Assembly (NCBI GenBank): GCA_934725285.1
Contig: CAKVBK010000016.1
Location: forward strand, 1 to 25,701
Direction: 5' to 3'
Length of the DNA: 25,701 bases
Origin: an uncultured Bacteroidales bacterium
GTDB lineage: Bacteria > Bacteroidota > Bacteroidia > Bacteroidales > UBA932
Position 1 is the first letter of the stretch; each line of letters opens with the position of its first letter. The notes beneath the pieces are model-generated. The model was given only the letters and a program-made list of their open reading frames with translations. It made no database searches and was not told where the DNA came from. Made by a program: the position numbers and the translations under genes. Shown here one piece after another: positions 1,570 through 14,833 of the stretch.

Positions 1570-1590
1570 TGTTCCTCCCAGTAATAAATA
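1570..1590 (+). repeat. Cassette 1 left inverted repeat
   Basis: This 21-bp arm (TGTTCCTCCCAGTAAT then AAATA) pairs with 1705-1725, matching at 18 of 21 positions. The core CTCCCAGTAA is perfect. Each arm is itself an imperfect dyad (TGTYACT / AGTAACA around CNN), as expected for a tyrosine recombinase core site. The central dinucleotide here is CC. Confidence 0.85.
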
Positions 1591-1599
1591 TGTTTTAAT

Positions 1600-1618
1600 G
1601 TGCCCAATAGGGGTACAC
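1600..1618 (-). promoter_or_regulatory. Leader hairpin, cassette 1
   Basis: GTGCCC (1600-1605) can pair with the GGG and CAC of GGGGTACAC (1610-1618), with a two-base bulge. It lies just downstream of the predicted transcription start within the invertible segment, so it is transcribed in either orientation. Stem sequence differs from cassettes 2 and 3 but the hairpin position is kept. Confidence 0.5.
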
Positions 1619-1633
1619 GCATTAACACAACGA

Positions 1634-1664
1634 CAAATATATGAGTTTAATTTTTCATAAGCAA
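1634..1664 (-). promoter_or_regulatory. Phase-variable promoter 1 (leftward)
   Basis: On the minus strand a TTG (1662-1664) is followed after exactly 20 bp by TATATTTG (1634-1641). This matches the Bacteroidota primary sigma factor consensus (TTTG / TAnnTTTG, 19-21 bp spacing). The same two boxes and spacing occur in cassettes 2 and 3. Confidence 0.8.
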
Positions 1665-1704
1665 GATTTTTTGAGAAGAAATCGCCTAAAATCCTGCAAA
1701 ATAT

Positions 1705-1725
1705 TATTTGTTACTGGGAGTGACA
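1705..1725 (-). repeat. Cassette 1 right inverted repeat
   Basis: Reverse complement of the left arm at 1570-1590, with three mismatches of 21, ending in ACTGGGAGTGACA. It carries the same central CC dinucleotide as its partner. Confidence 0.85.
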
Positions 1726-1843
1726 ATGACGATCGGATTTGATGTCCAATAAGGCTATGAAAGAGCGACAAACGCTCTGGCGTTTTAACTGATGATAACT
1801 ATAAACATTTAAGTTCAATCTATACATTTTTATTTTTTTTGTT

Positions 1844-4800
1844 ATGAACAAAAAGTTGATCAATTCTTTCCTGCTTGGAGCCACATTGGTTCTGTCAGCA
1901 GGTGCTTTCGTGTCCTGTCAGGATTATGAGAGCGACATCAACGACCTTACCGATCGCGTGAGTGCTGTCGAGAAGGTGTCTAAGGAGTTGCAGGCTCTGA
2001 TTCAGAAAGGGTCTGTGATCACTAATGTTGAGTCCACCGCAACTGGTGTCAGAGTGACATTGAGCGATGGCAGCACATTTGAGCTCACCAACGGTACCAA
2101 TGGTGTCGATGGTAAGGATGGTAATGACGGTGCCGATGGTAAAGACGGCAAGCCAGGAAGTGTGGTGACTATCGGTAAGGATGGTTACTGGTACATTGAT
2201 GGTGTCAAGACCGAGTACAAAGCCCAAGGTGAAAAGGGCGACAAGGGCGACAAAGGCGACAAGGGCGACAAAGGCGACAAAGGCGACAAAGGCGACAAGG
2301 GCGAGGATGGCGCTGATGCCACAGGTATTTACTACTATCCGGGCACCGAGGGCGCTGAGAACGGTTTCTGGGTAAAGGTTACCGTTGTTGGTGGCAATGA
2401 GACCAAGGAAGTGACCACTTTGAGGTGGGCTCCAAAGGATGAAGACCGTATCGGTGTCGTTTGGACTGACGGCCAGCTTAAACTGACTAACGTCAAGGGT
2501 TATGAAGGTACTCTTGTGATCGATCTTAACACTTACCTCAAGGCTCTTGTCTTTAAGCCTGAGATGGTTCTTGACGGTCAGAACGCTATGGAGTACATCT
2601 ACATCCCTTATCAGCCTGTGACTGTCGGAAGCAAGGCCGTAAATGTAAAACACGCTCATCAGCGCCACACGGCAGATGGTTGGGAGAATGTTGAGAACAC
2701 CTACTCAGTCGGCGCTACGACTAGTCATAGTGGTGTGGCTTACCTTAACCCTACCTACGACAAGCTTTACAGCCTTGACCCTTCAAACGCGATCGTGCCT
2801 GAATATGCACAGAAAAACCTTGGTACTGTGTCTCAGGACCCTGATTTCGTGAAGACAAGGGCCGCAAGCGTTCCTAACTATGCGTCAAATCCTGCCGCGG
2901 CTGATCCTAAGGCCACATTCCTTGACGTGAAGGACGGTATTATGCACGTTGGCATCACTATGAAAGGCCAGCTGGTAAAGACCCAGGAGGAGGCCAACCC
3001 TTATGAGGCATTCTCATTCTACAATCACAAGGCAGACAAGAGCAAGATCACGGATCTCGCTGTCATCGCTCCTTTGGGAGAGGGCAAAGAGACCATCACA
3101 TCCACATGGGCTTCTGTCTATGCTTCTCAGATGGTGTTCGAGAGCCTCTCTTACACGGACTTCGCAAAGCAGTACACTTATGTTGACCCTGAGCACAATT
3201 ACACTTCTTGGTCTTATGTGAACGGCAAGTTCGTTCAGAAGATCAACGAGAAGGGTAGACTTCTTGGTGAAGGCACTGATTCTCACAAGACTCCGGTCGA
3301 GGGTGGTATGCATCTTTATCACAGTGTGCACGATGCCGCTCAGATGGTCGCAACTCTTGAGCTTGCGTACGACAGCGAGACAGGTCTGAACCTTAACAAG
3401 CTTGTTGACGCTGACGTTGTCTACAACTCTTGCCGCTCTTGGAACGACAACAATATCAAAACCCGCACAGAGGCTCAGCTTAAGGAACTCGGAATGAAGT
3501 TCAATTTCGTTCAGGTTCCGTTTGCTGTAGGTGAGAATGGAACAGAGCAGACCCAGAACCACAGCATTCTCGACAAGAGGGCTGACGGTACTTACATCGT
3601 TGCTTGTGGTGTCAAGTCCAACAGTGACACCGATCCTACGGCTTGCGTGCCTGATCCAAGCAAGGTTGGCAAGAACGCTCCTAAGTCTATCGTAGGCAGA
3701 ACTCCGCTTATCCGTGTTGAACTTAAGGACACTGTCAACAACAAGATTGTCGAGGAAGGTTACATCAAGTTCATCATTGTTGAGCCTGAGAGACCAATCA
3801 TCACCAAGGCATTCGATCTCGGTTACTTCTACTACAAGTGCACAGATCAGTTCCAGACCGCTACATGGCATGCCATCGAGCAGAAGGTTCTTGACGAGGG
3901 TGTTGATATGGGCAAGGAGACATTCAACCTGCTCTATGAGGCAGTTAAACTCCCTGAGAGTGATGACCCTAACAGCCCTGAGAACGTGTTCGCTCAGTGG
4001 GAGCCTACCGGAAAGACGGACATCTATGGCCAGCCTACGTTCAAACTTACCACAAAGCCTGTCGGTAGGATCTATGAACTCAAGGATCCTGATCACGAGA
4101 CAACAAATGTCATCAGAATTGACCTTACCCGCGCTGACTTCGTGAACTGTGTGAACGACAAGACTTATCCTGTTGTTGAGGAACTCAGATACATCAAGTT
4201 CATTCCAAGGAAGGGTCTGGGTAACACCAACTTCAACCGTGAGCCTGTCTATCTCCCTGTCAAGGTTACCTTCGCATATCCTAAGGCAGTGATGGCCAAC
4301 AAGATTCCTAAGTACTGGTACGCTGACAACAGCTTCAACCCAGCAAACGATGTACTTGCCAAGGATCAACTTAAAAACATCCACGGCAACGTCGAGGCTC
4401 CAGGCAACGAGGTTGACATCAAAGAAGCGAGCTGCGACTTCAATGTTTATCTTGACGAGCGCTTCGCCAAGACCACAATCGGACATTCATTCGGCAATGA
4501 CTGGTCATCTGATTTCACCTTCGGTGTGAATGACAATGCTCCTACAATCACAATCGAGCCGGATGCGTTCACTCCATCGATGGCTTGGAATGTACCTGCT
4601 AACTTCCCGACATTCAAGCAGAGCGAGCTTCGCTATGTATATTACTTCACACTTGCCAACAATAACAAGAGTGTCAAGGGTGCGAGTGGTAAGACATATA
4701 AGCTTTCTGTTGCCAACACTGTTGACATCACCAAGCCTGCGGCTGCCGTTTCTCTCTACACTGATAATACTAAATACGAGTACAAGAACACTGTTCTGAA

Positions 4801-5593
4801 GGCTGGCAATGAGGTGATTGCTCAGATTGAGTACTCACGTAAGGCTACAGAGTTCGGTGAGGAGGCATCACGTGATTACGAGGCAAGACTTGTGATTCCG
4901 AGTGACTCTGAGGCCGCAAAGGATCTCATCAATCTTCCGGAGGGTAAGAAGTCATTGTCTATCAATGATGCGGAGTCTGTTGCCAAATTCTTCCAGGCTA
5001 CGTTTGATGTCAACCTCGGTGTGGCTGTCTTCAACAAGGAGTGTGGCGCTTATATGCCTCTGAAGGACAACACGTTCAATGTTGAGCTCCTGAAGCCGGT
5101 TTATGTTGAGCCAAAGGGCCCTGCAGTGTTTACAGATGCTGTTGACAATGGAACAACAGTTTCCCTCTTCGATCTTGTCGAGTTCTATGATTGGAGATCT
5201 ATTGGCACCGCCAGTGACTATGTCTTCAGAACTCATAAGACGACTGATCTCTACAAGTACTACAATGTAGACCTCATCACCGTCAATCCAGAAGATATCA
5301 AGACTGACCTTTCCGGTGAGTTCAAGTCTCTCAAGGAGTATAGCAACGGCGTTGAATTCCAGGTGATCAACGGTGCTGGAACTCGTGTTGACAATGGCCA
5401 TATTGTTCCTGCCAGCCATAAGTCACAGCCTAAGAATGATGCTTACAACTATGACTTCCTGAGGTATAAGAACAACACCGCTACAGTTGTCAGCTTCAAG
5501 GTTCAAATCCCTGTCAGAATCCACCACAAGTGGAGCCAGAAAGACCTTGTTGTTTGGGTTGAAGGCACTGTTAACAGGACTGAAGGCAATTAG
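1844..5593 (+). CDS. Collagen-like surface lipoprotein, phase-variable
   Basis: 1249-aa predicted lipoprotein. The signal peptide ends in the lipobox AFVSC with the lipidated residue at Cys25, followed by QDYESDIND and a short leucine-rich helix (about 30-53), the N-terminal pattern annotated in Bacteroidales as DUF4988 / PL29-lyase N-terminal domain. Collagen-like Gly-X-Y runs follow at about 84-105 and 129-158; the second has seven consecutive GDK triplets. The remaining ~1080 residues are a large beta-rich region with no family I recognise. Its C-terminus (VEFYDWRS ... DFLRYKN) resembles that of the lipoprotein at 9970 (FEFKDWRG ... GYLRYVN), so they are paralogues with different stalks. 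It is first in a likely operon behind invertible promoter 1, OFF in this assembly. The start fits the MNKK signal peptide shared with the gene at 14874. Surface display is likely; the ligand is unknown. Confidence 0.88.
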   Translation: MNKKLINSFLLGATLVLSAGAFVSCQDYESDINDLTDRVSAVEKVSKELQALIQKGSVITNVESTATGVRVTLSDGSTFELTNGTNGVDGKDGNDGADGKDGKPGSVVTIGKDGYWYIDGVKTEYKAQGEKGDKGDKGDKGDKGDKGDKGDKGEDGADATGIYYYPGTEGAENGFWVKVTVVGGNETKEVTTLRWAPKDEDRIGVVWTDGQLKLTNVKGYEGTLVIDLNTYLKALVFKPEMVLDGQNAMEYIYIPYQPVTVGSKAVNVKHAHQRHTADGWENVENTYSVGATTSHSGVAYLNPTYDKLYSLDPSNAIVPEYAQKNLGTVSQDPDFVKTRAASVPNYASNPAAADPKATFLDVKDGIMHVGITMKGQLVKTQEEANPYEAFSFYNHKADKSKITDLAVIAPLGEGKETITSTWASVYASQMVFESLSYTDFAKQYTYVDPEHNYTSWSYVNGKFVQKINEKGRLLGEGTDSHKTPVEGGMHLYHSVHDAAQMVATLELAYDSETGLNLNKLVDADVVYNSCRSWNDNNIKTRTEAQLKELGMKFNFVQVPFAVGENGTEQTQNHSILDKRADGTYIVACGVKSNSDTDPTACVPDPSKVGKNAPKSIVGRTPLIRVELKDTVNNKIVEEGYIKFIIVEPERPIITKAFDLGYFYYKCTDQFQTATWHAIEQKVLDEGVDMGKETFNLLYEAVKLPESDDPNSPENVFAQWEPTGKTDIYGQPTFKLTTKPVGRIYELKDPDHETTNVIRIDLTRADFVNCVNDKTYPVVEELRYIKFIPRKGLGNTNFNREPVYLPVKVTFAYPKAVMANKIPKYWYADNSFNPANDVLAKDQLKNIHGNVEAPGNEVDIKEASCDFNVYLDERFAKTTIGHSFGNDWSSDFTFGVNDNAPTITIEPDAFTPSMAWNVPANFPTFKQSELRYVYYFTLANNNKSVKGASGKTYKLSVANTVDITKPAAAVSLYTDNTKYEYKNTVLKAGNEVIAQIEYSRKATEFGEEASRDYEARLVIPSDSEAAKDLINLPEGKKSLSINDAESVAKFFQATFDVNLGVAVFNKECGAYMPLKDNTFNVELLKPVYVEPKGPAVFTDAVDNGTTVSLFDLVEFYDWRSIGTASDYVFRTHKTTDLYKYYNVDLITVNPEDIKTDLSGEFKSLKEYSNGVEFQVINGAGTRVDNGHIVPASHKSQPKNDAYNYDFLRYKNNTATVVSFKVQIPVRIHHKWSQKDLVVWVEGTVNRTEGN
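2237..2299 (+). repeat. 9-bp tandem repeat coding GDK collagen triplets
   Basis: Seven tandem copies of GGCGACAAR, each encoding Gly-Asp-Lys, differing only in the Lys codon wobble. Near-identity at DNA level makes copy-number change by slippage plausible; whole-unit changes keep the frame and would alter stalk length. Confidence 0.85.
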
Positions 5594-5618
5594 TTGATAA
5601 TTGATTGATCTGTCGATT

Positions 5619-5654
5619 TCCCCGGTTTGCGAAAACGAGCCGGGGATTTTTCTT
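5619..5654 (+). terminator. Rho-independent terminator
   Basis: Stem TCCCCGG (5619-5625) with CCGGGGA (5640-5646), followed by a T-rich tract. It lies 26 bp after the lipoprotein stop. No clear promoter is seen between it and the next gene, so partial read-through is plausible. Confidence 0.75.
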
Positions 5655-5697
5655 AAATGACCTTGACCATCATATTAATAATACACTGAAAGTGCTG

Positions 5698-6405
5698 ATG
5701 ATGAGAAAGATAGTTTTGATATTGCTGCTGGTGACACTCGGAGTGTCCGGAATCTCCGCCGCGCCCGCTGCCATACATCCGGAAGGCCGGCAGGATAGTC
5801 ATCCCATCGGATCTGACCCAAGTGATTTCCGTCCGGAATGGTTTGTCCAGGCTCTTGGCGGGGTGGCTTGCACATTGGGCGAGGCTGATTTCATCGACCT
5901 TCTTTCGCCGGCGGCTCAAATATCTGCCGGCTGCATGTTCAGCCGCTTGCTTGGCGCCAGGGTAGCCTTCTGCGGTTGGCAGGCCAGAAACGTGTACAAT
6001 TACCCTCGTTTCGATTACAGTTGGAATTATGTACGGTCAAACGCCGAGATTGTACTGGATGTCACATCTTTGCTGGCCGGCTGGCGTCAAGACCGTGCTG
6101 TCAGTCTGAGTCTGTTTGCCGGAGGGGGAGCGGCAGTGGGTTTCAGAAACATAGAGGCGGCTCGGATGCGCAGGAATAATCCTGATTTTTATGGCTTCGG
6201 GAAGTTGTGGACCGGAACAAATATATTCTGGTCGGCGCGTGTAGGGATTGCTGTTGATGTCCGTCTTTCCGGCCGCCTGTCTCTTTGTCTGGAGGCGGAC
6301 GCTGGAATATTCCCGGATGACTTCAATTCAAAGGTTGGCAAGAATGATGGCTTGGACTGGCAGTTCAATTGCCTTGCCGGTTTGAAATTCGGCTTCGGTC
6401 GATGA
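5698..6405 (+). CDS. OmpA-type outer-membrane beta-barrel protein, no OmpA C-domain
   Basis: About 235 aa from the ATG at 5698 (or the next codon, 5701). The start at 5698 is chosen because a hydrophobic signal peptide (MMRKIVLILLLVTLGVSGISA) begins there and the upstream extension would run back through the terminator hairpin. The mature protein parallels the barrel of the OmpA-family protein at 23656: PEWFVQALGGVACTLGEADF versus PYWFMQLQGGAAHTIGETSF, then LLSPAA / LISPSA, GAR, GWQ and DDFNSK / DHFNSK. It stops where the barrel ends and lacks the proline-rich linker and peptidoglycan-binding domain. It sits between two collagen-like lipoprotein genes, 48 bp before the second, so it is probably co-expressed with them. 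Role unknown; it might anchor or help surface-expose the neighbouring lipoproteins (inference). Confidence 0.75.
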   Translation: MMRKIVLILLLVTLGVSGISAAPAAIHPEGRQDSHPIGSDPSDFRPEWFVQALGGVACTLGEADFIDLLSPAAQISAGCMFSRLLGARVAFCGWQARNVYNYPRFDYSWNYVRSNAEIVLDVTSLLAGWRQDRAVSLSLFAGGGAAVGFRNIEAARMRRNNPDFYGFGKLWTGTNIFWSARVGIAVDVRLSGRLSLCLEADAGIFPDDFNSKVGKNDGLDWQFNCLAGLKFGFGR

Positions 6406-6453
6406 GAAGTTCATCGCCTTATAAGAAAACGAAATTATGTCAATTAATCTACA

Positions 6454-9060
6454 ATGGATACGATGAGAAAATATTTCAAGGCGGGAGCCGGACTTGCAGC
6501 GACGGTGCTCCTCGCTCTGTCATCATTGATGTCGTGCTCTGACTATCAGGATGAGATCAATAACCTCGGAAAGCTATACGAGGAACACGAGCTGCGCCTA
6601 AAGAAACTGGAGGACTTGGCTGACAGCTTCAGCGGACAATTGCAGAGCCTGTCATCTCTGGTCAATGCCTTGGAGGGTGGTGACTACATCAAGTCAGTCG
6701 TGCCGACCGAAAATGGCTATACAATTTATTTCAACAAACAGGCTCCGATAACCATCACCAATGGCAAGGACGGTCAAGACGGACTTGATGGCAAGATTCC
6801 TGACATATCGATCAAGCAGGATTCGGATGGATGCTACTACTGGACGCTGAATGGAGAGTGGCTTCTGGCCGGCGGTCAGAAAGTCCGTGCCAACGGTAAG
6901 GACGGCGAGAAGGGCGAAAGCGGTGAGAAGGGTGATAAAGGAGATAAGGGTGATAAAGGAGATAAAGGTGACAAGGGTGATTCGGGCAGTGCGAGTGGGA
7001 CCCCTATGATTCGTATCAACCCTTCCACAAATGAGTGGGAGGTCTCTGCGGATGGAGGAAAGACTTGGACTACAACAGGAACCAAAGCGACCGGGCCACA
7101 AGGAGAGAGTGGTGAGAAGGGAGACAAAGGAGATAAAGGAGACAAGGGCGATAAGGGTGATGCTGGTGGCGCCGGTTTGTTCGCCGGCGTGAAACTGTCT
7201 GAAGACGGAAAGACTCTGACACTCACAATGGCGGATGGCACGGTCTATAATATTCCTGTCGCCGTGAAAGAACCGGAGCCTGAAGAAAAGTTCATCTGGG
7301 TGGGAGGCACCGTGATTGACTCCAACAACGCCTCCAGCGTCGGAGGGGCTTGGCTCAAGAAGGGAAAGGTCTCGTATGACTTTGAGTCGAAAATCCTCAC
7401 ACTTCAGGGAGTTGATATAGAGACATCCCTTGACAACGTCGGTATCAAATCCGAGGTGAGTGGTCTGACTGTCAATGTTATCGGGACATGCTCGATCAAA
7501 TCCTCATCTTCCGCCATCAACGCGCTTGCTGATATAAGGATAACCGGCAGTGGAGTCCTTAAGCTGGAGGGAACAGTCGGAATAATGTTGCAGCCGTCAT
7601 CGTCAGCCACCATATCGGATGCCGATGTCAGGGTGAAAGGCAAATGGGGAATCACCAGCCCTCAAGGAGGAGATGGCTACCTTAAGGTTGAGGGAACCAA
7701 AACATATCTTGCGGTGGAAGGTACTTCTGGCTCTATCGCCGAAATCGAAGGATTGGGTTTGGATGGATGCAAAATCACAGTGCCCGAGAATGCGGTCTTT
7801 GACACTTATTATGGTTCCGTCGTTGTGGACGGAGAGACGGTGAAGACACTTGTGGAGATCAAGAGTGTGTATGAGCTTTCCATCGGGGGAGAGAAAGTCT
7901 CCGCTGACAATGCCGCCAGCGTCACCGGAGAGTGGCTGAGAGGGGGCAGTGTCTCCTACGATGTGACTTCGAACACCCTCACCTTGACTAACGCCGAGAT
8001 TGTCTCTTCCTCGACTGGAATCGTGTCTTCCATAGAGAATCTTAAAATCCGCGTGAATGGTAAATGTCACATCAACTCGGTCGGGTCCGCCATAGAGTCC
8101 GCCGGCTCTTTGAATATTCTTGGGTCAGGTACCTTGAATTTGAACAGTGATTCCGGCGGTGGTGTGGCACTTACCGAGAATGGCGCCAGACTCACAATTA
8201 ATGGATGCAAGATCAATGCGGCTGGCAGGTATGGCCTGTCTGGGCTCGCTGATGGCCTGTCCTACTTGTCTGTCATCGGTGTGGACACTGAGGTGGCGGC
8301 CACAGGTGCGTTGGGTTCGGTTGTGAACTTTGACACGCTGGACCTTGACGGCTGTGTCATCGTTGTTCCGGAAGGAGCGAAGTTTGATGCGTCCAATCGT
8401 GGAATAGTCCAGAACGGTGATATAGTCAAATCAAAGGTCGTGATCGGGAAGGAGGCTGAATACGATCTTTGGATAGGAGGAGTCAGGGTGACCGCTGAAA
8501 ATTCAGCCAGCATAACCGGTTCTTGGCTCGGAGGCGGTTCGGTTTCCTACAGCGCTGCCAGCAACCTGTTGACATTGAACAATGCGACAATCAGATTGAC
8601 AGACGAGTCCGCGATCGGAGTGGATTCCCGTATCGACGGACTGAAGATTCACGTCAGCGGCACGTGCTCAGTGGTGTCAAAGGCTCCGGCGATGACTGTG
8701 TCCAAGTCAGTCACAATAATCGGAGGCGGAGTCCTGAATCTGGAAAGCGAAGGGTGCGGATTGTCATTGTCTGCCAAGGACTCAAGATTTAAAGTCGCTG
8801 CAGCCGCTGTCAACGTCAAAGGCAAATGGGGCGTTGCCGGCGGAAAAGCCTACAATGCCAGTCTGGAACTCTCCGATGCCTCAGGAGAACTGTCGGCGGA
8901 AGGTTCCGAAGGCTCGATAGTGGACATCGGAGGAATATATTTGGCTGACGGATGCGCGATCACATCTCCAGACGGGGCCGTTTTCGACGCTGCCAGAAAA
9001 GCGGTTGTGAATGACTCCGGAGAAATTATCAAGGAGAGAGTCAGGATCGGCAAGAAGTGA
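6454..9060 (+). CDS. Collagen-like lipoprotein with three ~195-aa repeats
   Basis: 868-aa lipoprotein with lipobox LMSC (Cys28; Cys25 if translation starts at the fourth codon, ATG 6463). SDYQDEINNL and a short coiled coil follow, then an NGKDGQDG segment near 103-113. There are two collagen-like blocks, about 148-178 and 214-240, separated by a small domain with NEWEVSADGGKTW. The C-terminal two thirds consist of three homologous units starting near residues 281, 475 and 672. Each opens with an IGG/VGG strand, then W(L)xxGxVSY and LTLxxAxI, and continues with short beta-strand turns rich in I/V and G, which suggests a parallel beta-helix or similar solenoid. No catalytic motif is recognised. 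It ends the first operon. A surface adhesin or glycan-binding fibre is a reasonable guess only. Confidence 0.83.
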   Translation: MDTMRKYFKAGAGLAATVLLALSSLMSCSDYQDEINNLGKLYEEHELRLKKLEDLADSFSGQLQSLSSLVNALEGGDYIKSVVPTENGYTIYFNKQAPITITNGKDGQDGLDGKIPDISIKQDSDGCYYWTLNGEWLLAGGQKVRANGKDGEKGESGEKGDKGDKGDKGDKGDKGDSGSASGTPMIRINPSTNEWEVSADGGKTWTTTGTKATGPQGESGEKGDKGDKGDKGDKGDAGGAGLFAGVKLSEDGKTLTLTMADGTVYNIPVAVKEPEPEEKFIWVGGTVIDSNNASSVGGAWLKKGKVSYDFESKILTLQGVDIETSLDNVGIKSEVSGLTVNVIGTCSIKSSSSAINALADIRITGSGVLKLEGTVGIMLQPSSSATISDADVRVKGKWGITSPQGGDGYLKVEGTKTYLAVEGTSGSIAEIEGLGLDGCKITVPENAVFDTYYGSVVVDGETVKTLVEIKSVYELSIGGEKVSADNAASVTGEWLRGGSVSYDVTSNTLTLTNAEIVSSSTGIVSSIENLKIRVNGKCHINSVGSAIESAGSLNILGSGTLNLNSDSGGGVALTENGARLTINGCKINAAGRYGLSGLADGLSYLSVIGVDTEVAATGALGSVVNFDTLDLDGCVIVVPEGAKFDASNRGIVQNGDIVKSKVVIGKEAEYDLWIGGVRVTAENSASITGSWLGGGSVSYSAASNLLTLNNATIRLTDESAIGVDSRIDGLKIHVSGTCSVVSKAPAMTVSKSVTIIGGGVLNLESEGCGLSLSAKDSRFKVAAAAVNVKGKWGVAGGKAYNASLELSDASGELSAEGSEGSIVDIGGIYLADGCAITSPDGAVFDAARKAVVNDSGEIIKERVRIGKK
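6931..6975 (+). repeat. Collagen-coding 9-bp repeats, block 1
   Basis: Five consecutive GDK triplets coded by GGWGAYAAR 9-mers. They are more diverged in wobble positions than the run at 2237-2299. Confidence 0.8.
7120..7155 (+). repeat. Collagen-coding 9-bp repeats, block 2
   Basis: Four consecutive GDK triplets in the second collagen-like block of the same gene, preceded by GPQGESGEK and followed by GDAGGAG. Confidence 0.8.
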
Positions 9061-9081: not shown

Positions 9082-9128
9082 AAGCCATTTCATCGCAAGC
9101 CTTTTAAAGGTCACCGATGAAATGGCTT
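9082..9128. terminator. Hairpin at convergent gene ends
   Basis: A perfect 14-bp stem, AAGCCATTTCATCG (9082-9095) with CGATGAAATGGCTT (9115-9128), followed on the plus strand by TCCCCTTTT. It lies between the stop of the rightward lipoprotein (9060) and the leftward DUF1573 gene, overlapping the last codons of the latter. It probably ends rightward transcription; leftward action is less clear because no T-run follows on that strand. Confidence 0.6.
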
Positions 9129-9586
9129 TCCCCTTTTCCACTTTCATTATGTTCCGGATCTGTGACTGTCCCTTTTACTCTAAGGATGGTCTGATGTGGG
9201 CTTGAGGAAACGAACACCGAAATGGATTTGTCAAAATTCCCTTTCCCTATCCGATTGGAGAACGAGATCTTTATCTCGCCGCTCTCGCCTGGCTTCACCG
9301 GCTTTTCTGACCAGTCTGCCTGCGTGCAGGCGCACGACACGATCACTCTTTGTATGACAATCGCCACGTCTGCGTTGTTCGTGTACTTGAATATGCATGT
9401 TTGCGGACCGTCACTTTCGGAGATCTCGCCGAAGTCGTGCACCTTGTTGTCGAAAGTCAGCGTTTTGGCCGCCACCACATTCTGATTTTGTGCCACAGCC
9501 TGTGGGGTGATTCCTGCGGGCAACGTTTGGGTTGTCATCAGCAAGGCACCGGCCATGAGATATTCAATGATAGCTGTTATTCTCAT
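9104..9586 (-). CDS. Exported DUF1573 protein (first copy)
   Basis: 160 aa with a hydrophobic N-terminus consistent with a signal peptide ending near AVAQ, then a single DUF1573 domain of Ig-like fold. Diagnostic signatures are FDNKVHDFGEI, FKYTNNADVAI, VSCACT, KPVKPGESGEIKISF and GNFDKSISVF. The usual SCGCT box reads SCACT. Members are widespread in Bacteroidota and mostly uncharacterised. It is divergent from the lipoprotein gene at 9970 with invertible promoter 2 between; in the present orientation that promoter points at this gene, giving a leader of about 250 nt. A similar pair recurs at 14084/14874, so the pairing is probably functional. I see no other consensus promoter between the gene and the cassette. 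Confidence 0.82.
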   Translation of the reverse strand: MRITAIIEYLMAGALLMTTQTLPAGITPQAVAQNQNVVAAKTLTFDNKVHDFGEISESDGPQTCIFKYTNNADVAIVIQRVIVSCACTQADWSEKPVKPGESGEIKISFSNRIGKGNFDKSISVFVSSSPHQTILRVKGTVTDPEHNESGKGESHFIGDL

Positions 9587-9695
9587 CAGTCATTAAGTTG
9601 TCGTCCGCATTTTTCACCCGGTCATAGCTTTGCTTTGGCTGTCTTTCCGGCAAGTATCGCATGCTGCGGAGACTGACGTTCTTCCGCCAGACAAG

Positions 9696-9711
9696 TATGC
9701 AAAATGTATGT
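9696..9711 (+). promoter_or_regulatory. Tandem arm-type-like motif beside cassette 2
   Basis: TATGCAA (9696-9702) and GTATGT (9706-9711), 87 bp before the left inverted repeat. A further GAATATGT occurs 37 bp after the motif start, at the same offset as in cassette 3. Intervening sequence is largely diverged between loci, so the conserved positions look selected. Confidence 0.55.
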
Positions 9712-9782
9712 CAGCGGCCACCTGTACCTAATGAATATGTCGGTCTGGAATGCCTGCAAAGTGCCTCCTGAAGAAAAAGCGG

Positions 9783-9801
9783 TGTCACTCGTAGTAATAA
9801 A
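9783..9801 (+). repeat. Cassette 2 left inverted repeat
   Basis: TGTCACTCGTAGTAATAAA, matching the reverse complement of 9919-9937 at 17 of 19 positions. The central dinucleotide is GT in both arms. Confidence 0.85.
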
Positions 9802-9812
9802 TATGTTTTTAG

Positions 9813-9830
9813 GTGCCCATTCGTAGGCAC
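9813..9830 (-). promoter_or_regulatory. Leader hairpin, cassette 2
   Basis: GTGCC (9813-9817) pairs with GGCAC (9826-9830) around an eight-base loop, just downstream of the predicted start site. It occupies the same place as the hairpins of cassettes 1 and 3. Confidence 0.5.
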
Positions 9831-9845
9831 ATAATAACACAACGA

Positions 9846-9876
9846 CAAATATATGAGTTTAATTTTTCATAAACAA
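9846..9876 (-). promoter_or_regulatory. Phase-variable promoter 2 (leftward)
   Basis: Minus-strand TTG (9874-9876), 20-bp spacer, TATATTTG (9846-9853). Boxes and spacing are identical to promoters 1 and 3. Confidence 0.8.
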
Positions 9877-9918
9877 GATTTTTCTGTCAGAAAATAAGAA
9901 AAATGAGGGTAAAATCTT

Positions 9919-9937
9919 TTTATAACTACGAGTAACA
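9919..9937 (-). repeat. Cassette 2 right inverted repeat
   Basis: Reverse complement reads TGTTACTCGTAGTTATAAA. It contains the clearest outer half-site (TGTTACT, complementary to AGTAACA of other arms) and ends 32 bp before the lipoprotein start codon. Confidence 0.85.
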
Positions 9938-9969
9938 TGTTTAACTTTTTTATTAACTAATTATCCTTT

Positions 9970-12900
9970 ATGAAACAATTTTTCAGATTGGTTTCGATGT
10001 TGGCCATTGCTGGGCTGACATTTGCGTACACCAGCTGTACTGATTATTCAGAGGACATCGACAAGACGAACAGTCGTGTCGACAATCTGGAGACCAAGTT
10101 GGCTGATGTCGAGAAACAGGTAGCGTCTAACAAGACCGCTATTGAGGATCTTCAGAAGGCTAAGGCTGAGGCTGAGACTGCCATCAAGGCCCTTCAGGAG
10201 ACCGTTGCCACACTTGAGACTAAGGAGGATCACAAGAAAGATGTTGATGCTCTCAAGTCTACCATCGAAGGCCTTAAGGCTGATGTTCAGGCTATTGACA
10301 AGAGGGTAAAGGCTATTGAGGACAAGCTTCCTTCTTACGCCACTCTTGAGTATGTTAACGCCACATTTGCGACTAAGGATCAGATGGCTGCCGCTAACGG
10401 GGAGATCGGCAAACTTGACGCTCGCCTTAAGATCGCTGAGGGTCAGCTTACCACTCTCGTAGGCAAGTACGATTCTGACCTTAAGATCTCTGAGATCATC
10501 GCCAAGATCGACACAGCCCAGAAGGCTGCCGAGGCTGCTCAGAAGACCGCTTCCGAGGCTCTTGGTAAGGTTAACGCTCTTGTTGAGGCTCTCGGTGTTT
10601 ATGCTGGGGAAGGAAAACTTGAGGCTAAGATCAAGGCTTTGGAAGATGAGGATGCCAGACTTGACGAGGTTAAGCTTAATGTAGCGGAATTCGGCAAGTA
10701 CTTCGATGAGGCTATTGAGAAGGCTTGCAAGGAAGGCGGTGAGGTTTACGAGACCGTTTACAAGCCGCTTGAGAAGAAGATCTCTGATGTAGACGCAAGG
10801 CTCACCACTGTAGCCAACGCTCTCAACGCTAAGATCAGCAAGCTTTGGGGTGTATTCAACACTGAGCTGAGAAGCCTTGTTTTCGTGCCAGGTCTTTACG
10901 TTGATGGCATTGAGGCTGTTGAGTATAGTTATGGTGACTTTTTCGCAGCCAAGTTTGCTGAGGCTGAGTTTGAAGGTACGACAGATGCTCAGAAGTCATT
11001 CGTTCTTGGCGGTGCTTGGGACTATACATACGACAAGGCTGTCCGCGTTAACCCAGCTGTGCCTGTTGAGTATGAAATGAATCCTTCAAGCGCGGTTGTC
11101 ACCGCTGACAATGCTCTTAAAATTGTCGTTAGAGAGGCTGAGTCCGTTTCAACCAGATCCGCAGCTGATCTTTATGAGGCTACTCTGGCAGAGACCAAGA
11201 ATGGCAATCTCTTTGTCAACCTTACATCAAACAAGGTGGCTGAAGAGAGCAAGCCTGTGATAAATGGTAATGACAGTAAGGAAAACATCACCATCTTCGC
11301 CCTTCAGGCCAATGTGAAGACTTCTGCCGGTGAGGACACTACTGTGACTTCAGACTATGCCCGCATCTATGAGTCCAGATTTATGATCGATGCTATCTCT
11401 TACAATAGCACTGATTATGGTACAAAGACAAATGCTTGCGAATATGGTCTTCCTACAAACCATCTCTTCCCTACTGCTCCTGGTGCTGTAAGCAACAAGG
11501 CTGAGCTGAAAGTTGATTATAAGGGTTCTCTTGACATCAAGAAGCTCCTTGAGATTCACTACTTTATCAACTCTATTACCTCAAAGGATACTCAGGTTGA
11601 TCATGTTTATGAGACTGACTATCCTGAGAATGACTACGGCCTTTCTTACAAGTTCTCTCTCGTTGACTACTATGTTGACGGTGATGAGGTTTCAGAGAGC
11701 AGCTTCGCTACAATTGATGAGAACACCGGTGTCATCACTCCGGGTGTTGACGGTGAGGTTACCCCTTCTGCCATCGACAGGCAGCCGTTGGTTCGCGTGA
11801 CTGTAGTTACAAAGGCTGGTGATGTTGTCGCTGTTGGTTACATCAAGGTTCAGATCGCTCCTAAGGATTACATCAAGTCTGACGGATTTGATTGGACTGT
11901 TGCCGCTAACGATTGCGAGAACAGTACTGTTGAAACCAAGGCTGACGAAATGACCAAGATCTATGTCACTGTTGACGCTGACGAGGTGGCATTCGACAAG
12001 GTTTACGCTCTTCAGACCGAGGCATCTGCCGCTGTTCAGTACAGCTTCGCTGACACCAAGTTCACTGAGGCTGCCGAGGCTATAGGTGTTGTTACTGAAA
12101 AGGTTAACAATGGAGTATCTACTCTTGAGTGGGTTCTCACTCCAGCCGACAAGTCCGCTATCTACAAGAAGGAAGGTCATACCGCTACTGTTTGGGTAAG
12201 ATACGTCTTCATCAGACACAATGGTGAGGAAGTAGAGGATGAGTTCGAGGGTGTATATGTTCCTCTTAAGGTTACTGTCACCAAGAACGCTGCCGGTACA
12301 GTTGGTGTCAAGCTTGCCGCTTACTGGTTCGACAACCAGAGCAAGGCTATCCTTAACGTCAAGGTTCCTAACGCTGAACCTGGCAAACCGGTTCCTTCTA
12401 CTTGGGTAACTCCTATCAATCAGGTATGGGAAGGCAACAATCCTAAATTCACTGTTGCAGGAAAGACTGTGGCGAACCCTGTCTACAAGTACTATTTCGC
12501 CCCTATTCAGCCTAAGGTAGGTAATGTCCAGCTGTATGTTGACTCAAAGGATGTTGTCGATCTCTATGACGGCAAAGTCACGATTACTGACAACGCTCAG
12601 CTTTCTGAGAATGAGGTTGCGCTTTCAGCGAATTATGATGCTGGTGTTTACACCAACACTGAACTTAAGGCTAATGGCGTTGTAATCGCTACGATCAATC
12701 AGGAGACTGGTGAGGTTACTTATGAGAACAACGAGACTGCTAAGGCTCTCCTTAACTACTCTCCGTCAGTTCCTAAGTCAGCTGCTGAACTCTATGCCAA
12801 CATTGGCGTGGTACTTAAAGCTGCTGATGGTGATTGCAACCTCGTAGCTGCCATCGCCGGTGGCGTTAACCCTTACTACTTCCTCAGACCTCTCAATATG

Positions 12901-13425
12901 CCTCCAATTACAGGTAAGGTATATCGTGACGGTGTTGATGCCCACAAGCCAGAGGCTAACCTCAGCATCTTCGATGTATTCGAGTTCAAGGATTGGAGAG
13001 GTGACAATGGTAAGTTCGTAACTCCTGACTACAGCAACCTCTGGTACTTCAAGTACTACAATGTCAATAACTTCAAGGTTGATGAGGCTGGTATCACCAC
13101 TACCCTTAACGGTGGCGTTCTCGGTGAGACTCTCCTTTCTACCAAGACTAAGGACATTCAGATCTGGCACTGCACTGGTGATATTACCGACCCTACAAGG
13201 GTTCCTGCCGCGACAGGTCTTGACATCACCTACAGCTCTGAGACAATGCCTAACTGGGGTGAGACTCAGTACAACGGTCTGAAGAAGAAGTTCGGTTATC
13301 TCCGTTATGTCAACAACGGTAATAACGTAGACACGGCCTTTATGCTTCGTATCCCTGTACAGGTTACTTACGAGTGGGGCGTTATCTCTACCTATGTTGA
13401 CGTTACTGTTGAGCCTACTCTATAG
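9970..13425 (+). CDS. Coiled-coil surface lipoprotein, phase-variable
   Basis: 1151-aa lipoprotein with lipobox YTSC at Cys23 followed by TDYSEDIDKTNSRV. Instead of a collagen-like stalk, residues about 30-300 form a long coiled coil rich in A, E, K, D and L with heptad spacing (KTAIEDLQKAKAEAETAIKA and on). From about residue 310 the sequence rejoins the paralogue pattern: RSLVFVPGLYVDGIEAVEY here, ALVFKPEMVLDGQNAMEYIY in the gene at 1844, SIALIPEALMEGLGYIEFPY in the gene at 14874. The C-terminus (FEFKDWRG, YFKYYNV, GYLRYVN) matches that of the gene at 1844. No enzymatic motif seen. It lies directly behind invertible promoter 2, OFF in this assembly; the start is set by the MKQFFR signal peptide. 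Probably a trimeric or fibrous surface structure (inference). Confidence 0.88.
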   Translation: MKQFFRLVSMLAIAGLTFAYTSCTDYSEDIDKTNSRVDNLETKLADVEKQVASNKTAIEDLQKAKAEAETAIKALQETVATLETKEDHKKDVDALKSTIEGLKADVQAIDKRVKAIEDKLPSYATLEYVNATFATKDQMAAANGEIGKLDARLKIAEGQLTTLVGKYDSDLKISEIIAKIDTAQKAAEAAQKTASEALGKVNALVEALGVYAGEGKLEAKIKALEDEDARLDEVKLNVAEFGKYFDEAIEKACKEGGEVYETVYKPLEKKISDVDARLTTVANALNAKISKLWGVFNTELRSLVFVPGLYVDGIEAVEYSYGDFFAAKFAEAEFEGTTDAQKSFVLGGAWDYTYDKAVRVNPAVPVEYEMNPSSAVVTADNALKIVVREAESVSTRSAADLYEATLAETKNGNLFVNLTSNKVAEESKPVINGNDSKENITIFALQANVKTSAGEDTTVTSDYARIYESRFMIDAISYNSTDYGTKTNACEYGLPTNHLFPTAPGAVSNKAELKVDYKGSLDIKKLLEIHYFINSITSKDTQVDHVYETDYPENDYGLSYKFSLVDYYVDGDEVSESSFATIDENTGVITPGVDGEVTPSAIDRQPLVRVTVVTKAGDVVAVGYIKVQIAPKDYIKSDGFDWTVAANDCENSTVETKADEMTKIYVTVDADEVAFDKVYALQTEASAAVQYSFADTKFTEAAEAIGVVTEKVNNGVSTLEWVLTPADKSAIYKKEGHTATVWVRYVFIRHNGEEVEDEFEGVYVPLKVTVTKNAAGTVGVKLAAYWFDNQSKAILNVKVPNAEPGKPVPSTWVTPINQVWEGNNPKFTVAGKTVANPVYKYYFAPIQPKVGNVQLYVDSKDVVDLYDGKVTITDNAQLSENEVALSANYDAGVYTNTELKANGVVIATINQETGEVTYENNETAKALLNYSPSVPKSAAELYANIGVVLKAADGDCNLVAAIAGGVNPYYFLRPLNMPPITGKVYRDGVDAHKPEANLSIFDVFEFKDWRGDNGKFVTPDYSNLWYFKYYNVNNFKVDEAGITTTLNGGVLGETLLSTKTKDIQIWHCTGDITDPTRVPAATGLDITYSSETMPNWGETQYNGLKKKFGYLRYVNNGNNVDTAFMLRIPVQVTYEWGVISTYVDVTVEPTL

Positions 13426-13449
13426 TAAGATCTTAACATAGTATAATCA

Positions 13450-13481
13450 GGAGCGCATCGTTCTGCGGTGCGCTCCTTTTT
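13450..13481 (+). terminator. Rho-independent terminator
   Basis: GGAGCGCA (13450-13457) pairs with TGCGCTCC (13469-13476), followed by five Ts. It lies 24 bp after the lipoprotein stop and just 13 bp before the next gene, which has no evident promoter, so read-through is expected to supply that gene. Confidence 0.85.
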
Positions 13482-13493
13482 AATGACTTATGT

Positions 13494-13967
13494 ATGGAAA
13501 AATTCAGATCATTAGCTTGTTGTTCCGTCACTTTGGTCTTGGTGCTTTCTCTTTTGGCATCCTGCTCCGGCAGGAAACCAAAGGCGGCTCCTACCCGTCA
13601 GGAGATCTTTCTGTCCGAACTTACCGCCGCTGACACAACCGAGGTCCTTACAAGGGCTCAAGCGGTGATTGACAAGATAATCGCCGGTGATGTTACCGGT
13701 GCTCTCGATGGCTTGGGACAGGTCGAGAATGACACTTTGTTCCAGATCAGTTCAGAGAAGATCTCGGCTGCCGCCAACCAGTTTTACAAGATGAACCTCA
13801 AGCAGGCTAAGCTTGAGAGCTACACTTTTGTTGATCCAGATCACAATGTGGTAAGGTTCCGTGTCTCCTTCGGCCATTCCGATGATGAGGCCAAGCTTCT
13901 TTCCACTGCATTCGCCATCAATGCCCTCAAAATAGAAGGCAACTGGTACTTCACTCTGATGCAGTGA
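13494..13967 (+). CDS. Small lipoprotein of unknown function
   Basis: 157 aa. The signal peptide ends with LLASC (Cys24), followed by a basic SGRKPKAAPTR stretch. The mature domain is a mixed alpha/beta region of about 125 residues: helices around DTTEVLTRAQAVIDKI and SAAANQFYKMN, then strands SYTFVDPDHNVVRFRVSF and the final NWYFTLMQ. The ending, a strand containing W-Y-F-T, resembles NTF2-like or DUF4878-type lipoproteins, but that is a loose impression. It is the second gene behind invertible promoter 2, so it may accompany expression of the coiled-coil lipoprotein at a lower level set by the terminator between them. Confidence 0.72.
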   Translation: MEKFRSLACCSVTLVLVLSLLASCSGRKPKAAPTRQEIFLSELTAADTTEVLTRAQAVIDKIIAGDVTGALDGLGQVENDTLFQISSEKISAAANQFYKMNLKQAKLESYTFVDPDHNVVRFRVSFGHSDDEAKLLSTAFAINALKIEGNWYFTLMQ

Positions 13968-14010
13968 TTGCTTTCAACCTATAGCTGCGCATTGCGGCAG
14001 GATAATGAAT

Positions 14011-14051
14011 ATGACCGGAAGACAGACGTGTCGTGTCTCCCGGTCATTTTA
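14011..14051. terminator. Terminator between convergent genes
   Basis: ATGACCGG-AGACA (14011-14024) pairs with TGTCT-CCGGTCAT (14034-14047) with one mismatch, followed on the plus strand by TTTTAT. It sits between the small lipoprotein stop and the end of the leftward DUF1573 gene. Confidence 0.75.
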
Positions 14052-14083
14052 TAATGCCCAACCTGAATCTCAGTATAGTGAGA

Positions 14084-14524
14084 TTATTCAGTCACAGTTC
14101 CTTTTATGCGAAGAAGCACCGGCCTCTTCCCTGTCGAGGTGTAGACTGACACACCCTTGTCGAAATGATGTGGTGAGCCTTCATTGTCGTAAACCACTTT
14201 GATCTCCCCTTCATCTCCTGGCTTGATCGGCTTCCTCGGCCATTCGACTTTGGTGCAGTTGCAGAAGACTTTCACATCGTAGATCAAGATTGTCGTGTCT
14301 GTCTGGTTCTTGTACTTGAATGAACAATGCTGCGCTCCGTCCTCGTGCGTGATGTTCCCGAAGTCGTGCACCGTTTTCTCAAATGTCAGCAACGTGCTTT
14401 TCCTATGTCCTTTGTCCTGGGCCAGCACACCGTGTTGCATTGACAGTGTGACCGCGGTGATCGCAACGCACATTATCAACCTTCCAATCATTGCCACGGC
14501 CTTGTTCCCTGTCTTGATATTCAT
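14084..14524 (-). CDS. Exported DUF1573 protein (second copy)
   Basis: 146 aa. A signal peptide (hydrophobic MIGRLIMCVAITAVTLSM, cleavage probably near VLAQ) precedes one DUF1573 domain: FEKTVHDFGNI, CSFKYKNQTDTTI, VFCNCT, KPIKPGDEGEIKVVY and HHFDKGVSVYT. The cysteine box is CNCT where the family usually has CGCT. It is clearly paralogous to the protein at 9104-9586. It is divergent from the lipoprotein gene at 14874, with invertible promoter 3 between; that promoter currently faces away, so this gene should be silent unless the cassette inverts or an unseen promoter exists. Confidence 0.82.
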   Translation of the reverse strand: MNIKTGNKAVAMIGRLIMCVAITAVTLSMQHGVLAQDKGHRKSTLLTFEKTVHDFGNITHEDGAQHCSFKYKNQTDTTILIYDVKVFCNCTKVEWPRKPIKPGDEGEIKVVYDNEGSPHHFDKGVSVYTSTGKRPVLLRIKGTVTE

Positions 14525-14591
14525 AGTACCTTTTATTTTCCCTTTTCCTTGTCACTAAGTCCCAAAATAGCGGATATTTCCGTCAATCCCG

Positions 14592-14607
14592 TATGCAAGA
14601 CGTATGT
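14592..14607 (+). promoter_or_regulatory. Tandem arm-type-like motif beside cassette 3
   Basis: TATGCAA (14592-14598) and CGTATGT (14601-14607), 87 bp before the left inverted repeat, with GAATATGT 37 bp after the motif start. Offsets are the same as in cassette 2. Confidence 0.55.
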
Positions 14608-14678
14608 TTGGAGGCTTCTGTGATTCTTGAATATGTTTGTTTGGATGTCTCTGCGAGTGTTTCCGGAAGAAAAAGAAG

Positions 14679-14697
14679 TGTCACTCTTAGTAACAAA
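14679..14697 (+). repeat. Cassette 3 left inverted repeat
   Basis: TGTCACTCTTAGTAACAAA, matching the reverse complement of 14815-14833 at 16 of 19 positions. The central dinucleotide is TT in both arms. Confidence 0.85.
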
Positions 14698-14739
14698 CGA
14701 TTTTTAGCCATCTTTTTTGCATTTTCTGACAGAAAAATC

Positions 14740-14770
14740 TTGTTTATGAAAAATTAAACCCATATATTTG
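14740..14770 (+). promoter_or_regulatory. Phase-variable promoter 3 (rightward)
   Basis: TTG (14740-14742), 20-bp spacer, TATATTTG (14763-14770). Expected transcription start is near 14776, giving a leader of about 100 nt before the ATG at 14874. Confidence 0.82.
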
Positions 14771-14783
14771 TCGTTGTGTTATG

Positions 14784-14806
14784 GAGTGCCCCGTCATAGG
14801 GGGCTC
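14784..14806 (+). promoter_or_regulatory. Leader hairpin, cassette 3
   Basis: GAGTGCCCC (14784-14792) pairs with GGGGGCTC (14799-14806) around a loop of about six bases. No T-run follows, so it is not a terminator. It is positionally equivalent to the hairpins in cassettes 1 and 2 despite different stem bases. Confidence 0.55.
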
Positions 14807-14814
14807 AAAACATA

Positions 14815-14833
14815 TTTATTACTAAGAGGAACA
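14815..14833 (-). repeat. Cassette 3 right inverted repeat
   Basis: Reverse complement reads TGTTCCTCTTAGTAATAAA. It shares the outer TGTTCC with the left arm of cassette 1 and lies 40 bp before the lipoprotein start codon. Confidence 0.85.

What the first reader, a model, noticed from the sequence alone, without database searches (positions are those of the whole stretch)
1570..14833. Three paralogous invertible promoters caught in mixed orientation (OFF, OFF, ON)
Segments 1570-1725, 9783-9937 and 14679-14833 are 155-156 bp long, bounded by related inverted repeats (TGTYMCTCNNAGTAAYAAA), and carry a near-identical ~50-bp promoter core with TTG-20 bp-TATATTTG. Cassette 3 matches the other two only as reverse complement, so the assembly itself shows both orientations. 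Each stands before a >1000-aa surface lipoprotein, predicting up to eight expression states. Invertible promoters are known in Bacteroides (capsule loci), but I do not recognise this repeat family or its use for collagen-like and coiled-coil lipoproteins.
Basis: partly seen in the sequence, partly recalled or inferred. Interest (0 to 1): 0.95.

Follow-up and report, generated by a model that had tools for sequence, protein, structure and literature searches.

The report
Three address-coded flip switches, one recombinase
A stretch of Bacteroidales DNA carries three short segments, each with a promoter-like core between matching inverted repeats and in front of a very large predicted surface-lipoprotein gene, which the recombinase encoded beside them would likely flip one by one to switch those proteins on and off.

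Summary
Segments 1570-1725, 9783-9937 and 14679-14833 are paralogous promoter cassettes bounded by inverted repeats; two point away from their lipoprotein gene, the third towards it. I add: (1) the repeats are half-sites TGTYMC/GTWAYAAA around a 5-bp spacer, identical on both ends of a cassette but different between cassettes (TCCCA, TCGTA, TCTTA); (2) a motif, TATGYAAANNGYATGY, lies 87-88 bp before each cassette and upstream of the recombinase, recurs in relatives and near both ends of two mobile elements with related integrases, and is read as an arm-type site; (3) orthologous cassettes in two related genomes (L007, L035) are inverted relative to each other; (4) lipoprotein N-termini and the OmpA-family protein are homologous to Bacteroides loci carrying the published repeat of the phase-variable S-layer/OmpA system. 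There each cassette has its own recombinase frame and a 7-bp core, and the motif is near 1 of 41 sites. Verdict: very likely a real phase switch, a new variant of a known kind. Flipping in this strain is inferred, not shown.

The parts
249..1469 (+). Tyrosine recombinase, 406 aa, predicted invertase of all three cassettes
   Evidence: Pfam Phage_int_SAM_5 5.9e-16, Phage_integrase 4e-11, Arm-DNA-bind_5 21.2 bits against a cutoff of 22.6; K271, R355, H378, Y387 invariant in an alignment of it and 19 homologs
204..219 (+). Arm-type-like motif upstream of the recombinase gene (1 mismatch)
1482..1497 (+). Arm-type-like motif, 88 bp before the left site of cassette 1 (0 mismatches)
1570..1588 (+). 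Left core site of cassette 1, spacer TCCCA
1570..1725 (-). Cassette 1, promoter pointing away from the lipoprotein gene (predicted OFF)
1623..1665 (-). Promoter core of cassette 1 (TTG ... TATATTTG)
1707..1725 (-). Right core site of cassette 1, spacer TCCCA
1844..5593 (+). Lipoprotein 1, 1249 aa, DUF4988 (30.5 bits, cutoff 30), collagen-like stretch (26.1 bits, just under the cutoff of 27.2)
5619..5646 (+). Terminator-like hairpin after lipoprotein 1 (11 pairs)
5605..6405 (+). Beta-barrel-like protein (true start probably later than listed), homologous to the OmpA protein at 23581
   Evidence: 37% over 196 aa
6454..9060 (+). Collagen-like lipoprotein without a cassette
   Evidence: 26.3 bits, just under the cutoff
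9104..9586 (-). DUF1573 protein, divergent from lipoprotein 2 across cassette 2
9696..9711 (+). Arm-type-like motif, 87 bp before the left site of cassette 2 (0 mismatches)
9783..9801 (+). Left core site of cassette 2, spacer TCGTA
9783..9937 (-). Cassette 2, promoter pointing away from the lipoprotein gene (predicted OFF)
9835..9877 (-). Promoter core of cassette 2
9919..9937 (-). Right core site of cassette 2, spacer TCGTA
9970..13425 (+). Lipoprotein 2, 1151 aa, coiled-coil-like stalk
   Evidence: weak SMC-type matches only
13449..13477 (+). Terminator-like hairpin after lipoprotein 2 (13 pairs)
14084..14524 (-). DUF1573 protein, divergent from lipoprotein 3 across cassette 3 (41% identical to the first over 135 aa)
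14592..14607 (+). Arm-type-like motif, 87 bp before the left site of cassette 3 (1 mismatch)
14679..14697 (+). Left core site of cassette 3, spacer TCTTA
14679..14833 (+). Cassette 3, promoter pointing towards the lipoprotein gene (predicted ON)
14739..14781 (+). Promoter core of cassette 3
14815..14833 (-). Right core site of cassette 3, spacer TCTTA
14874..18092 (+). Lipoprotein 3, 1072 aa, collagen-like stalk (28.8 bits, cutoff 27.2)
23581..24723 (+). OmpA-family outer-membrane barrel with OmpA domain, predicted partner or anchor

Best explanation
Each of the three segments has a promoter-like core between two inverted recombination-site-like repeats (TGTYMC-N5-GTWAYAAA), and the tyrosine recombinase encoded at 249-1469 would likely invert each one to turn the lipoprotein gene behind it on or off. 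The 5-bp spacer is identical on both sites of a cassette and differs between cassettes. I infer that it serves as an address, so that one enzyme inverts each promoter without joining sites of different cassettes. The motif TATGYAAANNGYATGY, 87-88 bp outside each left site, is likely an arm-type binding site for the recombinase's N-terminal domain. As assembled, cassettes 1 and 2 are predicted OFF and cassette 3 ON. The products are predicted to be stalked surface lipoproteins of the class of the Bacteroides S-layer/OmpA proteins. Shown: repeats, spacers, promoter-like cores, motif, recombinase gene, opposite orientations in two related genomes, cargo homology. Inferred: flipping in this strain, which enzyme acts, promoter activity, surface exposure, arm-site binding, insulation between cassettes.
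For: Six core sites against 0.06 expected. Three 43-bp cores, none in shuffles. Cassette 3 inverted relative to 1 and 2. Recombinase ORF ending 100 bp before cassette 1, with K271, R355, H378 and Y387 invariant in it and 19 homologs. In 12 cassettes (three in the window, nine in relatives), spacer mismatches 0 of 60 and half-site mismatches 36 of 168, Fisher p 6.8e-6; with the one dropped independent pair added (L033, 2 spacer mismatches) p is 2.0e-4. 5 of the 12 point towards and 7 away from the downstream gene. Orthologs L007 and L035 have flanks 79% identical over 290 bp (plus strand) and inner segments 82% over 105 bp (minus strand). L001, with a recombinase 95% identical, has its cassette ON before the lipoprotein that matches the window's OFF lipoprotein 2. 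Motif: 4 hits at up to 1 mismatch in the window against 0.08 expected; at up to 2 mismatches, 73-119 bp before the left site in 10 of 12 cassettes, 0 of 12 on the other strand, 3.5% of random stretches. In Bacteroides, 65 of 66 site pairs among the 150 listed hits share their spacer against 34.2 in within-genome shuffles, and 0 of 6 neighbouring units within 15 kb share one against 93 of 249 distant ones.
Against: No reads or second assembly of this strain could be examined; its own genome is not held. Two of 12 cassettes lack the motif at up to 2 mismatches (L014 3, L021 5). Arm-DNA-bind_5 scores just under Pfam's cutoff (21.2 against 22.6). The canonical first catalytic Arg position (recalled) reads Asn248, invariant in the window's enzyme and 19 homologs. 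The spacers of cassettes 2 and 3 differ at only 1 of 5 positions. The spacer count over 12 cassettes is partly selected: 9 of the 18 site pairs were dropped, all with spacer mismatches. The same motif lies upstream of 28 of 39 recombinase genes, so it could be a regulatory operator instead. Relatives L002, L012, L013 and L063 have the recombinase and lipoprotein but no complete cassette.
Confidence: 0.85

Rival explanations
1. Either/or switch: in the orientation called OFF, cassettes 2 and 3 would drive the divergent DUF1573 genes (9104-9586 and 14084-14524), so each inversion trades one envelope protein for another.
For: Both cassettes lie between a DUF1573 gene and a lipoprotein gene that diverge. 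Apart from the cassette 2 core itself, no TAnnTTTG facing the DUF1573 gene was found in either gap, and no terminator-like site was listed in either gap.
Against: Cassette 1 lies behind the recombinase gene and the L001 cassette behind an ATPase-like gene, both without a divergent partner; the leader to DUF1573 would be roughly 250 nt (my estimate). Not tested beyond the sequence.
Confidence: 0.3
2. The cassettes are inverted by another recombinase encoded elsewhere in the genome, and the local one is a passenger.
For: Invertases acting at distant sites are known in Bacteroides fragilis (PMC4747536, passages). The window's own genome could not be searched.
Against: Cassettes lie beside this recombinase in nine relatives, although I searched only loci chosen by the recombinase, so linkage is partly built in. 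The accessory motif is shared by cassettes and by the upstream regions of 28 of 39 recombinase genes.
Confidence: 0.12
3. Fixed paralogous promoters: ancient inversions frozen in different orientations, no longer switching.
For: Only one orientation per cassette is visible in any one assembly. Some relatives keep a solo site or vestige (L063, L002).
Against: Spacer identity beside diverged half-sites (0 of 60 against 36 of 168) suggests ongoing exchange; opposite orientations in orthologs.
Confidence: 0.1
4. The motif TATGYAAANNGYATGY is an operator for a transcription factor rather than an arm-type recombinase site.
For: It lies within 120 bp upstream of 28 of 39 recombinase genes at up to 1 mismatch, in many directly after a TAnnTTTG-like box.
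Against: It lies about 100-126 bp inside both ends of the element in L017, and near both ends of the one in L003; constant 87-88 bp (window, L001) or 100 bp (L007, L035) spacing to core sites; near only 1 of 41 Bacteroides-type sites, and the two recombinases from such loci that were scanned lack an arm-domain hit.
Confidence: 0.3

Closest known systems
Bacteroides thetaiotaomicron BT1926-27-type phase-variable S-layer/OmpA loci (PMC12548429, PMC12578637, PMC12118408; passages read)
   Same: Invertible promoter before a large lipoprotein; OmpA-family or barrel partner; adjacent integrase; palindromic GTTAC..GTAAC sites.
   Different: In the three such loci read (L085-L087) each site pair or site has its own recombinase frame (312-339 aa in L086 and L087; 155, 345 and 484 aa in L085), about 24-28% identical to the window's apart from one 39-aa piece at 46%; the two scanned have no arm-domain hit. 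7 bp between GTTAC and GTAAC instead of 5, and the motif near 1 of 41 sites. The window has one 406-aa recombinase beside three cassettes.
Bacteroides fragilis Tsr19/BF2766 system (PMC4747536, passages)
   Same: One tyrosine recombinase flips more than one promoter, including one before outer-membrane protein genes.
   Different: There the second promoter is distant and the local one drives polysaccharide genes; here three cassettes lie within about 13 kb beside the enzyme.
Bacteroidales capsule promoters with GTTAC..GTAAC-type repeats (PMC12118408, passages)
   Same: Palindromic half-sites, tyrosine-type invertase or integrase nearby.
   Different: Cargo is capsule synthesis; 7 bp between the half-sites; longer segments (280-345 bp in B. 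xylanisolvens and P. distasonis against 155-156).
Integrases with arm-type sites (lambda Int, IntDOT; recalled)
   Same: Long tyrosine recombinase with N-terminal extension and a direct-repeat-like motif about 100 bp from the core sites.
   Different: Here the product is inversion of a promoter, and in the window the motif was found on one side only of each cassette.

Membership tests
Bacteroidales invertible promoter (inverton) | Segment bounded by inverted repeats and carrying a promoter-like core | tested here: met
Bacteroidales invertible promoter (inverton) | Site-specific recombinase in the same genome, often adjacent | tested here: met
Bacteroidales invertible promoter (inverton) | Both orientations of the same site observed in one population | not testable with these tools
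   No reads and no second assembly; only paralogs and orthologs
BT1926-27-type S-layer/OmpA phase-variable locus | Large lipoprotein homologous to that class | tested here: met
   N-terminal 69 aa 46% identical; the rest diverged. Class assigned through the published repeat, not through BT1927 itself
BT1926-27-type S-layer/OmpA phase-variable locus | OmpA-family or barrel partner | tested here: met
   46% over 342 aa
BT1926-27-type S-layer/OmpA phase-variable locus | Repeat CCGTTACCTABVRAGTAAC, 7-bp core | tested here: not met
   Window core is 5 bp: GTYMC-TCNNA-GTWAY
BT1926-27-type S-layer/OmpA phase-variable locus | Short recombinase per cassette without arm domain (as seen in L085-L087) | tested here: not met
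   One 406-aa enzyme with an N-terminal extension beside three cassettes
BT1926-27-type S-layer/OmpA phase-variable locus | Crystalline S-layer on the cell surface | not testable with these tools
   Needs microscopy; structure prediction of lipoprotein 3 failed (pLDDT 41)
Arm-site-dependent tyrosine recombinase | N-terminal arm-binding domain | tested here: inconclusive
   21.2 bits against cutoff 22.6; the domain is precomputed for many of the listed homologs
Arm-site-dependent tyrosine recombinase | Arm-type sites at a distance from core sites | tested here: inconclusive
   Motif present in 10 of 12 cassettes and near both ends of two mobile elements; binding not shown
Shufflon | Inversion swaps coding segments | tested here: not met
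   The six core sites lie between the main genes

The most novel reading that the evidence does not exclude
In this lineage the phase switch of the S-layer/OmpA class of loci was rebuilt around a domesticated integrase: one arm-site-binding recombinase flips three promoters independently, each cassette carrying its own 5-bp spacer as an address and its own arm site outside the invertible segment, giving up to eight surface states from one enzyme; in cassettes 2 and 3 the switch would be either/or with a divergent envelope gene.
Probability: 0.4. Interest if true: 0.65.

Novelty: new variant of a known kind. Interest (0 to 1): 0.5.

Why it matters
It links a known phage- and complement-resistance device of Bacteroides (phase-variable S-layer lipoproteins) to lineages seen here mostly as metagenome assemblies. 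It also offers a concrete, testable rule for how several invertible promoters served by one enzyme could avoid rearranging with one another: spacer identity within, spacer difference between. If the arm motif holds, it shows how an integrase can be domesticated into a promoter switch.

Tried and rejected
Structure prediction of lipoprotein 3 with six other sequences gave pLDDT 41, so no fold search was run. PDB sequence searches gave nothing for lipoprotein 2 and one weak stretch for lipoprotein 3 (a fiber protein, E 0.011, over its collagen-like part). NCBIfam gave no S-layer name for the six window proteins scanned. A DNA search with cassette 3 in 299 genomes of G001's genus matched 6, of which only G001 in full, the other five over 26-37 bp. 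The recombinase was found at E <= 1e-90 in 2 of 398 genomes of that genus and at E <= 1e-110 in 13 of 300 of G401's genus. A paired-site pattern for the Bacteroides repeat with a 100-130 gap gave 0 of 119 genomes because the gap was too narrow; the single site gave 42 of 119. The leader hairpin was folded in four sequences; only cassette 2 was clearly more stable than shuffles (z -2.76; the others -1.64, 0.03 and -0.65), so I do not build on it. The terminator scan listed 22 sites against 17.5 expected, so only the two long hairpins are used. Site pairs dropped before the spacer count: 9 of 18 (spacer mismatches 4, 3, 4, 6, 1, 2, 5, 3, 1); six had no promoter core, two shared their right site with a kept cassette (L008, L035), and one, L033:9700-9974, had a core and 2 spacer mismatches. 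The shufflon and capsule-promoter readings were rejected because the sites lie outside the main genes and the Pfam scans of the window's proteins showed no capsule gene. A paper search for phase variation, collagen-like, Bacteroid and invert together found 0 papers; this is no proof of absence, since most subscription papers are not held and two papers I tried could not be opened.
Full report
WHAT IS THERE. Their ends are six copies of one site, TGTYMC-N5-GTAAYAAA with up to one mismatch; no other copy was found in the window, against 0.06 expected in shuffles. Each segment holds the same 43-bp promoter-like core with TATATTTG, on the minus strand in cassettes 1 and 2 and on the plus strand in cassette 3. 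BLASTN confirms that cassette 3 lies inverted relative to the other two. Lipoprotein ORFs of 1249, 1151 and 1072 aa follow: collagen-like, coiled-coil-like and collagen-like stalks behind a lipobox-like start (the Pfam Collagen score passes the cutoff for lipoprotein 3 only). Long terminator-like hairpins follow lipoproteins 1 and 2.

THE ENZYME. K271, R355, H378 and Y387 are invariant in it and 19 homologs of 49-94% identity. The position where, from recall, the first catalytic Arg sits reads Asn248 in all 20. One genome-contig scan gave 38 loci, the nearest a 'Prevotella sp.' MAG contig (L001, 95%).

RELATIVES WITH CASSETTES. I found cassettes near the recombinase in 8 of the 38 loci (L001, L007, L008, L009, L014, L021, L030, L035) and in L065, from a genus search. 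L030 came from an inverted-repeat scan, L065 from another and L009 by eye; the other six came from half-site searches, first with a spacer filter and again without. In one search, 18 pairs were found; I kept nine (three of the window, six of relatives) with a promoter core and no spacer mismatch, and dropped nine with spacer mismatches, of which one (L033:9700-9974, 2 mismatches) has a core and shares no site with a kept one. Of the other 30 loci, L003 and L017 look like mobile elements; L002, L012 and L013 have the recombinase and lipoprotein without a complete cassette; L006, L016 and L032 have recombinase, OmpA-family protein and lipoprotein without a site pair; the rest were looked at only in the scans. 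The order recombinase, cassette, large lipoprotein, OmpA-family barrel is seen in 5 of the 9 relatives (L007, L008, L009, L035, L065); in L030 the barrel comes first; the contigs of L001 and L014 end in or soon after the lipoprotein; in L021 no barrel follows among the ORFs listed.

ORIENTATION. Over 12 cassettes (three in the window, nine in relatives) 5 point towards and 7 away from the downstream gene. L007 and L035 carry the same locus: flanks match on the plus strand (79% over 290 bp) while the inner segments match on the minus strand (82% over 105 bp). In L001 the cassette before a lipoprotein 47% identical over 247 aa to the window's lipoprotein 2 is ON, while the window's is OFF; its spacer, however, is that of cassette 3, and an ATPase-like ORF lies between recombinase and cassette.

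SPACER CODE. Within the 12 cassettes the 5-bp spacer never differs between the two ends (0 of 60 positions), while half-site positions differ in 36 of 168 (Fisher p 6.8e-6). This count is partly selected, as told above; with the dropped L033 pair it is 2 of 65 against 41 of 182 (p 2.0e-4). The window's three spacers differ from one another at 2, 2 and 1 positions. A test without that selection used the repeat published for the B. thetaiotaomicron S-layer operon and seven other loci (PMC12118408, passages), with three free spacer positions: 42 of 119 genomes of the genus of Bacteroides muris hold it. Among the 150 hits printed (listing cut), 66 form close pairs, 65 with equal spacers against 34.2 (maximum 48) in within-genome shuffles; 0 of 6 neighbouring units within 15 kb share a spacer against 93 of 249 distant ones. 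The last comparison is small (chance about 0.06, my arithmetic). I infer that the spacer is an address, since tyrosine recombinases need identity in the crossover region (established knowledge).

ACCESSORY MOTIF. TATGYAAANNGYATGY occurs four times in the window at up to one mismatch (0.08 expected): upstream of the recombinase and 88, 87 and 87 bp before the three left sites. Before the 12 left sites it is found at up to 2 mismatches in 10 (73-119 bp), not in L014 or L021, and on the other strand in 0; 3.5% of 2,400 random stretches reach that. It also stands within 120 bp upstream of 28 of 39 recombinase genes (the window and 38 loci) at up to 1 mismatch. In L017 a 15-bp direct repeat marks the likely ends of the element (9795 and 19171), with the motif at 9935 and 19071; in L003 the element splits a TraG-like frame (TraG named from recall) and has the motif near both ends. 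Bacteroides-type sites have it near 1 of 41, and the two recombinases from such loci that I scanned, 312 and 315 aa, show no arm-domain hit. I read it as an arm-type site; an operator is the rival.

RELATION TO KNOWN SYSTEMS. BT1927 is a phase-variable S-layer lipoprotein with a putative barrel anchor, BT1926, linked to complement and phage resistance (PMC12548429, PMC12578637; passages). In three unnamed-genome loci with the published repeat (L085-L087), one lipoprotein N-terminus is 46% identical to lipoprotein 3 (69 aa) and one OmpA protein 46% identical to the window's over 342 aa. So the cargo belongs to that class, while the switch differs in enzyme, core length, number of cassettes per enzyme and motif. 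One of these loci also has three cassettes with three different spacers within 12 kb, each with its own recombinase frame (L085).

LIMITS. Flipping, promoter activity, surface exposure and enzyme-site assignment are inferred. Structure prediction failed.

Noticed in passing
L063:1922 (after reverse complement), L002:6549: Solo recombination sites where relatives have a whole cassette: in L063 one perfect TGTTACACATTGTAACA lies between recombinase and lipoprotein, as if the promoter segment had been excised; L002 has a vestige.
   Followed up: partly
window 9104-9586 and 14084-14524: Two DUF1573 paralogs (41% identical) lie divergent to lipoproteins 2 and 3 across the cassettes; the OFF promoter would face them.
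   Followed up: partly
L016:4285-4419: The arm-like motif occurs as a perfect 15-bp inverted repeat 135 bp across, directly upstream of the recombinase gene.
   Followed up: no
L085 (G786:C3:56500-73500): A cluster in the genus of Bacteroides muris with three invertible-promoter-type site pairs within 12 kb, each pair with its own spacer and a recombinase frame beside it.
   Followed up: partly
window 14770-14832 and the matching parts of cassettes 1 and 2: The predicted leader RNA of the three cassettes and of L001 starts with a hairpin whose outer stem is constant and inner stem varies; only cassette 2 is clearly more stable than shuffles.
   Followed up: partly
L017:9795-19185: A likely mobile element in Bacteroides muris with a 15-bp direct repeat at its ends and a related integrase carries the arm-like motif about 100-126 bp inside both ends.
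   Followed up: partly
G738:C1:2035634 and 2035917: The one Bacteroides-type site pair of 66 whose two spacers differ.
   Followed up: no
L033:9700-9974: A promoter-core-bearing site pair upstream of the recombinase, with 2 spacer mismatches; dropped from the cassette count.
   Followed up: no
L010 / G404:C123: A recombinase gene of this family with an internal TAA, apparently broken.
   Followed up: no
window 20056-23241: A 1061-aa protein with 11 Big_2 immunoglobulin-like stretches downstream of lipoprotein 3.
   Followed up: no
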